The translations under genes and the position numbers were made by a program. From the NCBI RefSeq assembly GCF_017745095.1, contig NZ_JAGHZZ010000002.1:62001-126000 (forward strand): a DNA stretch of 64,000 nucleotides, read 5' to 3'. Positions 1-5,751 of this stretch are shown in pieces. Under the pieces are notes generated by a model. The model was not told the DNA's origin. It was given only the letters and a program-made list of their open reading frames with translations, and made no database searches. The stretch comes from Sporocytophaga sp. (GTDB taxonomy: Bacteria > Bacteroidota > Bacteroidia > Cytophagales > Cytophagaceae). Within the stretch, counting starts at the first letter, position 1, and each line of letters opens with the position of its first letter.

Positions 1-3000
1 CTGATAGGAATTTTAGATACCTGAATAGATATATACCCAGATTCAATTTTGGAAAGATCAAGAATATCATTGATCAATTGTATCAGATCGTCTCCGCATG
101 AATATATGGTGCGAGCGTAATTAACCTGTCTATCCGAAAGATTTCCTTCAGGATTTTCAAACAGCTGTTGTGCAAGTATTAACAAGCTGTTAAGCGGAGT
201 TCTCAGCTCATGTGACATATTCGCCAAGAACTCCGATTTATATTTGGAAGTCAGAGTAAGCTGTTCTGCCTTATCTTCCAGAGATCTTCTTGCTTCTTCA
301 ATAACTCTGTTTTTCTCTTCCACTTCCTGCTTTTGTTTCTCCAACAGGAAGGCTTTATCCTGAAGCTCTTCATTGGTTCTTGTAAGTTCGTCAGCAAGCG
401 ACTGAGACTGTATAAGCAGTTCTTCTGTTCTTGTATTGGTTTCAATAGTATTAATTACTATACCGATACTTTCTGTCAGCTGATCAAGGAAATCAAGGTG
501 AGTGCTGGAGAATGTATCAAAAGAAGCCAGCTCAATTACGGCCTTGATCTGATTTTCGAATAATACCGGAAGCACTATAATTGACAAAGGACTTGCTTCT
601 CCAAGGCTGGAGCTTATTTTAAGATAGTCTATAGGTACATTCTGTAAATGTATTTTCTCTTTTTCAAGCGCACATTGTCCTACCAGGCCTTCTCCAATAT
701 TAAACTCTCTTGGAATGCTGGTATCATCTGCATAGGAGGCAAATAGCTTCAGCTTTACCTGATCCCCTTCATCATTCAGGATATAGAAGGATCCTTTTTG
801 AGCTACCACTACCTGAGCAAGTTCTGAAAGAATTTTCTTAGCAACAGTATTTGTGTCTCTTTGTCCTTGAAGCATTTGAGTGAATTTGGCAAGGTTGGAT
901 TTTAGCCAATCCTGCTCGTGGTTTCTGAGTGTAGTTTCCTTCAGATTGGCAATCATCTGATTGATTGTATCTTTAAGTGCCTCCACTTCTCCACTCGCTT
1001 CTAGCCTGATCGTTCTTGTTAAATCGCCTTTGGTAACAGCAGATGCTACTTCTGAAATAGATCTAACCTGAGTGGTAAGATTTGCAGCAAGCTGGTTTAC
1101 GTTCTCTGTAAGATCTTTCCAGATACCTGAAGCACCTGGTACACTTGCCTGTCCACCCAATCTTCCTTCTACTCCTACTTCCTTCGCCACAGTTGTTACC
1201 TGATCAGCAAAGATCGCAAGGGTATCAATCATTTCATTGATAGTATCAGTCAGCTGCGAAACTTCTCCAGAAGCATTAATATTTAATTTTTGTTTCAGAT
1301 TACCTTTCGCAACAGCAGTTACAACTTTAGCAATTCCACGGACTTGACTTGTAAGGTTTGAAGCCATGAAGTTTACACTGTCTGTCAAATCTTTCCAAGT
1401 ACCTGCAACACCTTTTACCTGTGCCTGTCCTCCTAGTTTACCTTCAGAACCTACTTCCCTTGCAACACGGGTTACCTCAGATGCAAAAGAATTCAGCTGA
1501 TCCACCATGGTATTAATAGTATTTTTCAAATCAAGGATTTCTCCTTTTACATCCACCATGATTGTTTTAGAAAGGTCGCCACTGGCCACGGCTTTAGTTA
1601 CTTCCGCAATGTTACGCACTTGGGAAGTCAGGTTACCGGACATGTGGTTTACAGAATCAGTAAGGTCTTTCCAAATACCAGCAACACCAGGTACAAATGC
1701 CTGACCACCCAACTTACCTTCAGTACCTACTTCCCTTGCCACACGGGTTACTTCTGATGCAAATGCTCTCAACTGGTCCACCATGGTATTGATGGTTTCC
1801 TTTAACTGAAGGATTTCACCACGGACATCAACGGTAATTTTCTTAGACATATCACCGTTTGCCACTGCTATCGCAACATCTGTAATATTACGTACCTGAG
1901 CTGTAAGGTTACCAGCCATCTGGTTTACGGAATCTGTAAGATCTTTCCAAACACCTCCAACACCTTCTACACTGGCCTGGCCACCAAGTTTACCTTCCGT
2001 ACCCACTTCCCTAGCAACACGGGTTACTTCTGATGCAAAGGCTCTAAGCTGGTCCACCATCGTATTGATGGTATTTTTAAGTTCAAGAATTTCTCCTTTT
2101 ACATTTACTTCAATCTTCCTAGAGAGGTCACCTTTTGCTACTGCAGTTGTTACCTCTGCGATATTTCTTACCTGGGCTGTAAGGTTACCTCCCATTTTAT
2201 TAACAGAATCAGTAAGGTCTTTCCAGGTTCCTGCAACACCGGGAACATAAGCTTGCCCACCCAGCTTTCCTTCAGAACCTACCTCACGGGCAACACGTGT
2301 TACTTCAGAACCAAAAGCATTAAGCTGATCCACCATGGTATTAATGGTATTTTTCAATTCAAGAATTTCCCCCTTAACGTCCACAGTAATTTTTCTTGAA
2401 AGATTACCTTTGGCCACGGCTGTTGTTACTTCAGCAATGTTACGCACTTGAGCAGTAAGATTGCTGGCCATCTGATTAACAGAATCAGTCAGATCTTTCC
2501 AAACACCGCCAACGTCTCGTACTTTAGCTTGTCCGCCCAGTTTACCTTCTGTTCCTACTTCCAAAGCTACACGCGTTACTTCTGATGCAAATGAATTAAG
2601 CTGATCCACCATCGTATTGATGGTATTTTTAAGTTCAAGGATTTCTCCTTCAACGTTTACTGTAATTTTCTTGGAAAGGTCTCCATTTGCCACGGCTGTT
2701 GTTACATCTGCAATGTTACGCACCTGAGCAGTAAGGTTACTAGCCATTTGGTTTACGGAATCTGTAAGATCTTTCCATACACCTCCGACATCTCTTACTT
2801 TAGCTTGCCCGCCTAACTTACCTTCAGTTCCCACTTCCACAGCAACTCTGGTTACCTCAGAGGCAAAGGAGTTCAGCTGATCCACCATCGTGTTAATGGT
2901 TTCCTTTAATTCAAGAATCTCCCCTTCGACATTTACTGTGATCTTCTTGGAAAGATCTCCATTTGCCACTGCTGTCGTAACATCAGCGATGTTACGTACC

Positions 3001-4433
3001 TGAGCGGTAAGATTGCTGGCCATTTGATTTACAGAATCTGTAAGATCTTTCCATACACCACCAACTCCTTTTACTTTGGCCTGGCCCCCTAGTTTACCCT
3101 CTGTTCCTACTTCTAGTGCCACACGGGTTACCTCAGATGCAAAAGAGTTCAATTGATCCACCATCGTATTGATGGTATTTTTCAATTCAAGGATTTCTCC
3201 TTCTACATTTACAGTGATTTTCTTCGATAAATCTCCTTTGGCTACAGCGGTCGTTACATCAGCAATGTTACGCACCTGAGCTGTAAGGTTGCTAGCCATT
3301 TGGTTTACTGAATCTGTAAGGTCTTTCCATACACCTCCGACTCCTTTTACCTTAGCCTGTCCACCCAGTTTTCCTTCTGTACCTACTTCCAGCGCCACAC
3401 GGGTTACTTCTGACGCGAAAGAATTCAACTGATCCACCATCGTATTGATGGTATTTTTTAACTCAAGAATTTCGCCTTTTACCTGAACAGTGATTTTTTT
3501 TGATAAGTCCCCTTTTGCTACGGCTGTAGTCACATCAGCAATGTTACGAACCTGAGCTGTAAGATTACTCGCCATTTGGTTTACGGAATCTGTAAGGCCC
3601 TTCCAGGTACCTGCCACACCTTTTACCTGCGCTTGTCCACCTAGCTTACCCTCAGTACCCACTTCAAGAGCCACACGGGTTACCTCAGACGAGAAAGAAT
3701 TAAGCTGATCCACCATCGTATTGATGGTATTTTTCAGCTCTAGAATTTCTCCTTTTACATCGACAGTGATTTTCTTAGACAAATCACCTTTAGCAACCGC
3801 AGTGGTAACTTCAGCAATATTTCTTACCTGGTCAGTAAGGTTGCCTGCCATTAGGTTTACAGAATCTGTAAGATCTTTCCAAACACCTGCTACACCTTTA
3901 ACTTTAGCTTGTCCACCCAATTTTCCTTCTGACCCCACTTCCCTTGCAACACGGGTAACTTCCATTGAAAAGAGGTTAAGCTGCTTAACCATGTCATTAA
4001 CCTCTTTGGCAATCCGGTAAAATTCCCCTTTCAGCTTATGATTACTGACTGCCAGAGGCATTGTATTTGAAAGATTACCTTTAGCCACAGAACTGATTAC
4101 ATCTGCAATTTCTATAGTTGGTTGTACTAAATCAGTGATTAGTGAATTAATAGAATTAGTACCTTCTTTCCAGGCTCCTTTTCCATCGGTAAATGAGATC
4201 CTATGCTCAAGTTGTCCATTTTTACCGATTATGGTAGCAGCTTGAGTTAGCTCAGCCATGAAGCGCTCGTTCATTTCGACAATGGTATTCATGGTATCCG
4301 AAATTTTTCCTTTTATACCAGTCTGGTCCAATGCCATCCGGGCAGAAAAATTCCCATTTTTAATTTCAGTCAAAACTCTGAGCAACTCTTCATCCAAAGA
4401 AGAGATTTCCCTTGTTGCAGCTTTTACTTTCAT
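1..4433 (-). CDS. Soluble histidine kinase with a 13-unit HAMP array, GAF and HisKA domains (3' end outside window)
   Basis: One open frame runs from an ATG at 4431-4433 to the window edge, at least 1477 codons. No signal peptide or membrane segment is seen, so it should be cytosolic. After about 25 residues come 13 HAMP-like units; anchor methionines of the MVDQLN motif recur at residues 148, 240, 332 and so on to 1160, exactly 92 apart. A GAF domain follows at about 1190-1335 (start [12 protein letters not shown]), then a coiled coil at about 1340-1395, then HisKA with the H-box SHELRTPL and phospho-acceptor His1408, and [12 protein letters not shown]. ATPase and any receiver domains lie beyond position 1. 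The architecture resembles fungal group III (Nik1/Os-1) kinases, whose HAMP repeats are also about 90 residues. Signal and partners are unknown. It is separated from thiL by 286 bp and transcribed the same way. Confidence 0.9.
949..4020 (-). repeat. In-gene tandem array of 276-bp HAMP-encoding units
   Basis: The plus-strand marker tccaccat(c/g)gt(a/g)tt starts at 1501, 1777, 2053, 2329, 2605, 2881, 3157, 3433 and 3709, always 276 bp apart. Diverged counterparts sit at about 949, 1225 and 3985, in register. A first, more diverged unit near 4270 is 15 bp out of register. The middle units (about 1500-3990) are visibly most alike in DNA, the outer ones most worn. No indel breaks the register in 3 kb. 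Confidence 0.9.
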
Positions 4434-4719
4434 AAATCAATTACTCTGAAAAATTTACCTGGACTTTTTTCCTTAGTTTGGAAATTTGATAACATGCATC
4501 ATTGACAAGAATACTTTTTTGCCAAAGAGCAAACCTGAAAAGGCATGAAATGTTTTAAATGTAATCTTAAATAGATCCTATTTTAAAAGCAATATATTGC
4601 TTATCAAATGGATTAAAAAATAAAAAAAGTGAAAATTATAGGCGTAATAATCCCTATCAGATTCATGTAAAAACCATAATCTGAAATTTATTCAATTTCA
4701 AATTATGGCCTGAAAACTA
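4434..4719. other. Intergenic region between thiL and the HAMP kinase gene
   Basis: 286 bp of AT-rich DNA without a credible open frame. It should hold the promoter of the HAMP kinase gene and the thiL terminator described separately. No clear TAnnTTTG box was recognised on the minus strand. Confidence 0.6.
4669..4708 (-). terminator. Rho-independent terminator of thiL
   Basis: On the minus strand CCATAAT at 4708-4702 pairs with ATTATGG at 4680-4674, and inner TGAAATT/AATTTCA arms extend the stem around a short loop. A run of five T follows at once. It lies 12 bp past the thiL stop codon. Confidence 0.75.
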
Positions 4720-5751
4720 TTAAAAATGTGCCCAACCTTGAGCTTTTATAGGGAAAAAATTTCCTCCTCCTGTAATCAACTGCACTCCATCTGAATTGTC
4801 AGTTATATGCCCGATGATTGTAATATCAGGATGGTTTTTAATTTTATCAAATGCACTTTGATTAACTGTAAACAATAATTCATAATCTTCTCCTCCATTA
4901 AGAGCAACCGTAGTAGGATCAAGATTAAACTCTCTGGCAGTATCAAAGGTCATGCTATCCACCGGGAGTTTATCCTCATAGATTCTAGCTCCTACATTAG
5001 ATGCTTTGCATATATGAAGAAGCTCACTCGCTAATCCATCTGAAATATCAATCATGGAGGTAGGTTTAATTTTAAGCTCTTTCAGATCATAAGTTACATC
5101 CATTCTAGCCTCAGGCTTGAGTTGTCTTCTTACCACATATTCCTTATCTGAAAGTTGAGGCTGCATTTCAGGATCCTGTTTGAAAACCTGTTTTTCCCTT
5201 TCTAACAATTGTAACCCTATATAAGCGCCGCCTAAGTCACCAGTAACACAAATCAAGTCATTTACCTGAGCGCCTGATCTGTATGCTATTTCTTCTTTTT
5301 TTGCTTCACCAAGCACCGTCACTGAAATAACGAGGCCAGACCTTGAAGAGGTAGTATCTCCACCAGCCAGATCAACTTTATAATCTTCACAAGCTTGATT
5401 AATTCCCTCGTACAACTCTTCAATTGCTTCAAGAGAGAATCTGTTACTTAGTGCTACCCCTACCACAATTTGCTTGGGTATACCATTCATTGCTGCTATA
5501 TCAGAAACATTTACAGCTACAGCCTTATACCCTAAGTGCCTTAATGGGGTATAAGTAAGGTCAAAATGAATACCTTCGGCAAGAATATCTGTAGACACTA
5601 ATGTCAATTCATTCCTGTTTTCAATAACAGCTGCATCATCTCCTATGCCCGTTTGAGTTTCAGGATTCCTTAAAACAACTTTTTCCTTCAAACGATTAAT
5701 TAATCCAAATTCTCCTAAATCACTTAATTCCGTCCTTTTATTATTTTCCAT
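4720..5751 (-). CDS. thiL: Thiamine-monophosphate kinase
   Basis: 343 residues, the usual ThiL length. It phosphorylates thiamine monophosphate with ATP to thiamine diphosphate in the cytosol, the last step of the cofactor pathway. Family motifs are all in order: GIGDDAAVI at 35-43 (Mg-binding aspartates), STDILAEG at 53-60, NVSDIAAMNG at 81-90, DLAGGDTT at 127-134, VTGDLGGAYIG at 169-179, DISDGL at 235-240 and NGGEDYELLF at 285-294. The ATG at 5749-5751 fits the family start. Other thiamine genes are not adjacent. It has its own hairpin terminator and faces a small lipoprotein gene divergently across about 110 bp. No sequence defect is seen. Confidence 0.95.
   Translation of the reverse strand: MENNKRTELSDLGEFGLINRLKEKVVLRNPETQTGIGDDAAVIENRNELTLVSTDILAEGIHFDLTYTPLRHLGYKAVAVNVSDIAAMNGIPKQIVVGVALSNRFSLEAIEELYEGINQACEDYKVDLAGGDTTSSRSGLVISVTVLGEAKKEEIAYRSGAQVNDLICVTGDLGGAYIGLQLLEREKQVFKQDPEMQPQLSDKEYVVRRQLKPEARMDVTYDLKELKIKPTSMIDISDGLASELLHICKASNVGARIYEDKLPVDSMTFDTAREFNLDPTTVALNGGEDYELLFTVNQSAFDKIKNHPDITIIGHITDNSDGVQLITGGGNFFPIKAQGWAHF

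What the first reader, a model, noticed from the sequence alone, without database searches (positions are those of the whole stretch)
1..4433. Giant cytosolic kinase with 13 HAMP-like units in strict 92-residue register
Anchor methionines recur every 92 residues from 148 to 1160 without a single indel, followed by GAF and HisKA. Poly-HAMP soluble kinases are known from fungal Nik1 (about five or six repeats); this count is high, and the strict spacing suggests selection for coiled-coil phase or rotational transmission along a rod. Signal, partner and full length are unknown because the end lies outside the window.
Basis: partly seen in the sequence, partly recalled or inferred. Interest (0 to 1): 0.7.

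Follow-up and report, generated by a model that had tools for sequence, protein, structure and literature searches.

The report
Long HAMP-rod kinase plus partner kinase
The gene encodes a very long soluble bacterial sensor kinase whose front half is a chain of about 25 linked HAMP modules; the type is already known from myxobacteria and fungi, but its neighbours in relatives suggest that it often works with a second kinase that it switches on.

Summary
Twelve Met anchors (148 to 1160) enclose 11 units of exactly 92 residues. Each unit is read as a pair of HAMPs, not one. With a 97-residue cap unit and one leading HAMP, the array has about 25 HAMPs. The full gene (2097 aa, recovered from the contig) is HAMP array–GAF–HisKA–HATPase_c–three REC, with no predicted transmembrane segment.

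It belongs to a known kind: bacterial group III hybrid kinases (Myxococcus AskA/AskB) and fungal Nik1. CaNik1 is published as four 92-residue HAMP pairs plus one. PDB constructs 9trk/9trj cover the homologous N-terminus. The count is ordinary: 12 units is the commonest number among relatives and some have 15.

The register is strikingly fixed: 708 of 713 intervals are 92; four of the five exceptions are assembly gaps. Unit number varies by whole units. Units are old; the array has conserved ends and an interchangeable middle.

New here: a receiver-first kinase lies just downstream in 52 of 65 complete genes (29 of 29 Bacteroidota) and just upstream in 0 of 58. Best reading: the HAMP-rod kinase phosphorylates this REC-controlled kinase, as LvrA does LvrB. 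That cascade is inferred, not shown. Relatives are mostly the 80 with the most similar N-termini.

The parts
1..4433 (-). N-terminal 1477 residues of the 2097-aa poly-HAMP hybrid histidine kinase; the remainder (HATPase_c, three REC) lies beyond the window's left edge, to contig C22 position 60140, followed by the partner kinase
4272..4388 (-). Leading canonical-type HAMP (residues about 16-54)
   Evidence: no Pfam hit here; assigned from the sequence, from the 42-row alignment A1 and from 11 relatives in which the B-half profile finds it
3993..4283 (-). Cap unit, HAMP pair of 97 residues (51-147) with 5 extra residues in its second half
   Evidence: first interval 97 in 70 of 78 cases
957..3992 (-). 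Eleven exact 92-residue HAMP-pair units (residues 148-1159)
   Evidence: tandem repeat of 276 bp
957..1508 (-). Last two units (residues 976-1159), conserved in relatives as a distinct C-terminal end of the array
   Evidence: a relative's last unit best matches the window's last in 58 of 59, its penultimate the window's penultimate in 57 of 59
453..860 (-). GAF domain (PF13185, residues 1192-1327)
   Evidence: also in 10 of 10 relatives scanned
36..239 (-). HisKA domain (residues 1399-1466) with the H-box

Best explanation
It is a cytosolic hybrid histidine kinase of the bacterial group III (AskA/AskB, Nik1-like) kind. Two chains pair along a rod of about 25 HAMP four-helix bundles, roughly 60 nm long (my estimate from helix geometry, not computed). 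The rod sets the balance of conformations that reaches GAF and HisKA and so the kinase/phosphatase state; GAF may take a small ligand. Phosphoryl groups pass to its own three REC domains and to the N-terminal REC of the kinase encoded 33 nt downstream, switching that second kinase on. The array has fixed end units and an interchangeable middle. Unit number can change, but in whole HAMP pairs, so helix phase and the alternation of the two HAMP types are kept. Shown here: domains, register, age of units, fixed ends, gene pairing, intact receiver Asp. Inferred: dimeric rod, signal direction, phosphotransfer to the neighbour. Unknown: the signal.
For: Domains. PDB 9trk/9trj, Gcn4 fusions of the homologous N-terminus, E 1.4e-107 for 9trk; the two chains differ in length by 92 residues; I did not see the coordinates. 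Register 708/713 plus 211/211 in 20 further Myxococcus genes. Each of 11 units best matches the unit at the same position in 3 of 3 congeners. Synonymous codon identity between the window's units is not far from that expected from codon usage, 0.51 against 0.42, at 78% protein identity. REC-first kinase just downstream (same strand, frame beginning between 700 nt before and 450 nt after the kinase's end) in 51 of 65 genes, 52 with the overlap limit widened to 1300 nt; upstream 0 of 58 with enough sequence; 3 of 24 other kinases in the same loci (Fisher p 7.8e-9). Partner REC phospho-Asp kept in 52 of 52. Precedents: LvrA phosphorylates LvrB from an adjacent gene (PMC5863495 abstract and passages); REC phosphorylation activates LvrB (PMC13269768 abstract and passages); AskB and AskC bind each other, and Rec3 of AskA interacts with the receiver of AskC in a two-hybrid test (PMC7643160 passages).
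Against: No phosphotransfer or structure was tested; structure prediction never ran (13 busy replies). 13 of 65 genes lack the immediate partner, 9 of them cyanobacteria. The 65 include the window and three congeners, are not independent, and come mostly from the 80 N-termini most similar to the window. In L068 a REC-bearing protein like the partner (41% over residues 8-168) lies directly upstream instead, and 7 further genes have some kinase or REC protein upstream on the same strand within 1.5 kb. The partner's receiver Lys is missing in 9 of 52. Synonymous identity exceeds expectation in 72 of 72 arrays, so some copying or conversion after the first duplications is likely. The divergent half's HAMP fold is weak by sequence alone. 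One 9-residue deletion not due to an assembly gap exists (L081).
Confidence: 0.7

Rival explanations
1. The HAMP array is itself the sensor (of osmolarity, crowding or a hydrophobic compound) rather than a relay, as argued for fungal Nik1, and the downstream kinase is an independent gene carried along in the operon.
For: No sensor domain lies before the array. Deleting all HAMPs of CaNik1 activates Hog1 without a stimulus (PMC3848655 passages).
Against: GAF is present in 10 of 10 relatives scanned. The partner lies in the same place in 29 of 29 Bacteroidota and keeps its receiver Asp in 52 of 52.
Confidence: 0.2
2. The strict register is a by-product of recent tandem duplication of a 276-bp unit and says nothing about selection.
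For: Units of the window are up to 98% identical in protein, and synonymous identity exceeds expectation in 72 of 72 arrays; TRF finds a 276-bp array.
Against: The synonymous excess is small (window 0.51 against 0.42), units are positionally orthologous across the genus, and the same register holds in relatives that record titles place in nine or more phyla.
Confidence: 0.05
3. The array is mainly a scaffold or DNA-binding rod, as suggested for AskA/AskB, and kinase control is secondary.
For: AskB bound PmrpC DNA in EMSA and pull-down, and putative HTH matches were reported in AskA/AskB (PMC7643160 passages). FrzCD, a di-HAMP receptor, binds DNA (PMC12077210 abstract start in the listing).
Against: The same kind of SpoIIID match appears here only as a whole-protein sum with 0 stretches passing alone, overlapping HAMP, which looks like a repeat artefact.
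Confidence: 0.08

Closest known systems
AskA / AskB (with AskC) of Myxococcus xanthus
   Same: Soluble, poly-HAMP, HK, several RECs; AskC lies directly downstream of AskB (PMC7643160 passages). In 11 of 11 Myxococcus genomes one paralog has 15 units and a REC-HK 22-95 nt downstream.
   Different: Different phylum. The window protein has 12 units, against 15 and 7-12 in the two Myxococcus paralogs; its partner is shorter (409 aa). That the 15-unit paralog is AskB is my inference; a published length change in AskB's tract between two species (PMC4603909 passage) sits uneasily with its constant 15 here.
Fungal group III hybrid kinases (CaNik1, Bos1, TcsC)
   Same: Cytosolic or without membrane segments. 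CaNik1 has nine HAMPs as four 92-residue pairs plus one single HAMP (PMC3848655 passages), the same odd layout as the window's 12 pairs plus one.
   Different: About a third as many HAMPs; one REC and no GAF in the fungal proteins (recalled).
LvrA-LvrB of Leptospira
   Same: Adjacent genes for a hybrid kinase and a REC-controlled kinase, with phosphotransfer shown (PMC5863495 passages).
   Different: LvrA is described with PAS input and no HAMP array is mentioned in the passages seen; resemblance in mode of action only.
Poly-HAMP chemoreceptors (Aer2; di-HAMP MCPs)
   Same: Concatenated HAMPs. An MCP of this phylum repeats at 91 residues (L122), and L121 carries the same 92-residue array on an MCP output.
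   Different: Chemotaxis output instead of a histidine kinase.

Membership tests
Group III hybrid histidine kinase (bacterial AskA/AskB and fungal Nik1 type) | N-terminal tandem HAMP repeats of about 90 residues | tested here: met
   period 92; HAMP and HAMP_2 by Pfam
Group III hybrid histidine kinase (bacterial AskA/AskB and fungal Nik1 type) | No transmembrane segments | tested here: met
   maximum 19-residue hydropathy 1.52
Group III hybrid histidine kinase (bacterial AskA/AskB and fungal Nik1 type) | HisKA, HATPase_c and receiver domain(s) | tested here: met
Group III hybrid histidine kinase (bacterial AskA/AskB and fungal Nik1 type) | Response to ambruticin, phenylpyrroles or osmolarity | not testable with these tools
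   needs experiment
REC-controlled histidine kinase (LvrB type), for the downstream gene | REC at the N-terminus followed by HisKA and HATPase_c | tested here: met
   (409-aa protein: REC 9-122, HisKA 182-248, HATPase_c 297-402)
REC-controlled histidine kinase (LvrB type), for the downstream gene | Activated by phosphotransfer from an upstream kinase | not testable with these tools
   inferred from gene order and intact Asp

The most novel reading that the evidence does not exclude
Poly-HAMP hybrid kinases of several phyla are the first half of a conserved two-kinase cascade: a register-locked HAMP rod with fixed ends and a middle that evolves in whole pairs controls a kinase whose main output is to switch on a second, REC-controlled kinase. 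The odd HAMP number (2n+1) and invariant phase would be needed because neighbouring HAMPs alternate conformation, so that adding or losing a pair leaves the sign of the signal unchanged while losing a single HAMP would invert it.
Probability: 0.4. Interest if true: 0.65.

Novelty: new member of a known kind. Interest (0 to 1): 0.42.

Why it matters
How a signal can pass through many HAMP domains, and whether each one inverts it, is to my knowledge open. A family in which array length varies in whole HAMP pairs, even between congeneric species (7, 10 or 12 units in one Myxococcus paralog), gives ready-made constructs to test it. The recurring REC-controlled partner gives a concrete output to measure.

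Tried and rejected
Recent duplication as the cause of strict spacing: largely rejected, though some later copying is likely. Unusually high copy number: rejected. DNA-binding HTH motifs in the array: the SpoIIID hit is judged an artefact. Homology of the two halves by profile comparison: only weakly above shuffles, so not claimed as shown. CheR/CheB as general partners: CheR or CheB near the kinase in 5 of 87 loci, four of them on the same strand directly downstream, and in 8 of 10 Myxococcus paralog-1 loci, one of which (L043) is among the four. Promoter scan between the two kinases: nothing telling. Structure prediction: never started. Whole-genome scripting: not available. PHROGs and PADLOC, viral and plasmid collections: not searched.
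Full report
What was checked. The frame at window 3..4433 (minus) is real and open at the window edge. The contig gives the whole gene: 2097 aa, G000:C22:60140-66433. Met anchors stand at 148, 240 ... 1160, giving 11 exact intervals of 92. Residue identity within residues 1-1180 is 72% at lag 92 against a 7.0% (sd 1.9%) background, and the half-period lags 45 and 47 reach 12%, so each unit has a hidden two-part structure. TRF sees 9.4 copies of a 276-bp unit at 78% matches.

What the units are. Pfam finds HAMP (E 1.2e-114, 11 stretches) and HAMP_2 (E 4.9e-101, 12 stretches), then GAF_2 1192-1327, HisKA 1399-1466, HATPase_c 1513-1636 and three receiver stretches. By eye in the printed sequence, the three RECs keep an acidic pair, a phospho-Asp motif, Ser/Thr and Lys. 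Profiles made from the window's two halves (A, divergent; B, canonical type) give strict ABAB order from the cap on. With the leading HAMP that makes 13 B and 12 A; the leading one is not hit by Pfam or by the B profile in the window protein, but the B profile finds it in 11 relatives. The A half is only weakly similar to B (hhalign 13.7 against a best of 12.6 in 20 shuffles). For C. albicans Nik1 the literature describes nine HAMPs as four pairs of 92 residues plus a single HAMP (PMC3848655, passages seen). Two PDB entries, 9trk and 9trj (molecule name 'histidine kinase,Gcn4p'), match residues 11-292 and 11-200 of the window protein, and their chains differ in length by exactly 92. Of three queries, 9trk is nearest to a Myxococcus paralog (E 1.6e-171; other Myxococcus paralog 3.5e-109; window 1.4e-107). 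A search of the paper library for the two codes found nothing.

Register in relatives. In 91 array-bearing frames of 87 loci, the window's gene included, 708 of 713 intervals between full-strength A halves are 92. Four exceptions run through N; one is a 9-residue deletion in a metagenome contig, L081. The first interval is 97 in 70 of 78 cases, the rest being 92 (4), 96 (2), 98 and 99. Of 71 frames complete at the 3' end, 68 end in B; the other three are pieces of broken genes, L077 (two) and L096. Two of the 71 print a repeated letter: L032 across a run of N and L035 in its weak cap. Twenty further Myxococcus genes give 97 once each and 92 in 211 of 211 further intervals. As a rough yardstick, the GAF-kinase-REC part shows a median of 1.1 indel events per 100 aligned residues against the window protein in 60 relatives; this is a pairwise measure, the array figure a within-array one, so they are not strictly comparable.

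Unit number. In 64 complete genes, the window's included, the A-half count is 12 in 23, 10 in 14, 13 in 11, 9 in 7, 7 in 3, 11 in 2, 14 in 2, 15 in 1 and 3 in 1. In 11 of the 64 the cap half was not detected and the true number is one higher; 12 stays the commonest. Within Myxococcus one paralog has 7, 10 or 12 units (2, 7 and 1 of the 10 genomes fetched out of 11), the other 15 in 11 of 11. A poly-HAMP tract length change between the pair MXAN_6735/LILAB_12790 was already reported (PMC4603909, passage). The window's genus has 12 in 4 of 4.

Age and selection. Each of the window's 11 units best matches the unit at the same position in each of three congeners, and the array diverges at about the rate of the rest of the gene (array 0.872-0.899 identity, rest 0.882-0.897). 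Between units of one array, codons at identical residues agree more than codon usage predicts in 72 of 72 arrays, but not by much (window 0.51 against 0.42; mean 0.59 against 0.49), while neighbouring units share 83% of residues on average. So the units are mostly old and held by purifying selection, with some later copying likely. The last unit of relatives best matches the window's last in 58 of 59, the penultimate in 57 of 59 and the first in 45 of 59; a relative's middle units are 88% alike but only 61% like their own last unit. The array has defined ends and an interchangeable middle.

Other outputs and registers. In 118 genomes drawn from the phylum, 17 have HAMP_2 (E up to 1e-5); three besides the window's have the large 92-residue type. 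Two are kinases with a REC-HK downstream (L119, L120). The third, L121, carries ten units at 92 (no 97 cap seen) on an MCP signalling domain, next to CheY-like and CheA/CheW-like genes. A transmembrane-type MCP, L122, repeats at 91 residues, and L123, an MCP by eye, likewise. So 92 looks like a property of this array lineage, not of the kinase.

The partner. 33 nt after the kinase stop, on the same strand, lies a 409-aa protein (TTG start): REC 9-122, HisKA 182-248, HATPase_c 297-402. Among 65 genes complete at the 3' end with at least 1.5 kb beyond (window and three congeners included), 51 have a REC-first kinase just downstream on the same strand, 52 with a wider overlap limit: 29 of 29 in Bacteroidota, 2 of 11 in cyanobacteria, 10 of 12 (11 with the wider limit) in Pseudomonadota, 4 of 5 in Acidobacteriota, 2 of 3 in Myxococcota, 2 of 2 in Planctomycetota, 1 of 1 each in Elusimicrobiota and Dormibacterota, 0 of 1 in Verrucomicrobiota. 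Upstream the count is 0 of the 58 with enough sequence; 8 of the 65 have some other kinase or REC protein upstream on the same strand within 1.5 kb, among them L068, where a partner-like REC protein precedes the kinase. Other kinases in the same loci, those not beginning with REC, have a REC-first kinase downstream in 3 of 24 (Fisher p 7.8e-9); the genes are not independent, so p is only indicative. REC and kinase domains were found with small profiles built here; Pfam confirmed REC and HATPase_c in 9 of 9 partners scanned and HisKA in 8 of 9. The partner's phospho-Asp is present in 52 of 52, its conserved Lys in 43 of 52. The stretch between REC and HisKA varies: none, PAS or GAF. In 11 of 11 Myxococcus genomes the 15-unit paralog has a REC-HK 22-95 nt downstream, like the published position of AskC behind AskB (PMC7643160, passages). 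A general poly-HAMP/REC-HK pairing did not appear in my paper searches (open-access library, listings and passages only); subscription papers, including the HAMP survey of 2010 cited in PMC3570549, could not be read.

How it probably works. HAMP conformers can send opposite signals (PMC3570549, passages). In CaNik1, removing all HAMPs activates the pathway without stimulus. LvrA phosphorylates LvrB from a neighbouring gene (PMC5863495, abstract and passages), and REC phosphorylation makes LvrB's linker helices form a coiled coil and frees its catalytic domains (PMC13269768, abstract and passages). By analogy the rod sets the state of the first kinase, and the second kinase reads it through its REC. 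This chain is inference; the signal remains unknown.

Limits. Relatives were chosen by similarity, mostly to the N-terminus; profiles were built from the window, so distant arrays would be missed. Phylum labels come from record titles or kinship rows. Structure prediction was requested 13 times and never ran. After checking, the upstream control was corrected to 0 of 58, and confidence in the main reading was lowered slightly (0.72 to 0.70) because of L068 and the consistent synonymous excess.

Noticed in passing
L121 (G090:C22:449200-461200), 1269-5720 +: The same 92-residue HAMP array (ten units) is fused to an MCP signalling domain instead of a kinase, beside CheY-like and CheA/CheW-like genes: the array looks like a portable module.
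   Followed up: partly
L122, L123: Chemoreceptors in the same phylum-level sample repeat at 91 rather than 92 residues (L123 judged an MCP by eye).
   Followed up: partly
L038, L040, L043, L044 and Myxococcus L100, L102, L104-L108: CheR, mostly with CheB, lies directly downstream of the poly-HAMP kinase in these loci, often ahead of a REC protein.
   Followed up: partly
L096 (G001) and L077: Arrays split over several frames; one search reports a TGA inside one match of G001. Broken genes or sequencing errors; described only.
   Followed up: no
window 3..4433: Pfam's SpoIIID model scores E 1.3e-19 on the whole protein with no stretch passing alone, overlapping HAMPs, and weakly on L121 too; similar matches were read as DNA-binding domains in AskA/AskB (PMC7643160), possibly the same repeat artefact.
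   Followed up: partly
L009 2479-2865 + (left of the window): A 128-aa CheY-like receiver gene ends 12 nt from the partner kinase's end, on the opposite strand; a possible further receiver, not tested.
   Followed up: no
L068: A REC-bearing protein similar to the partner lies directly upstream of the poly-HAMP kinase instead of downstream.
   Followed up: no
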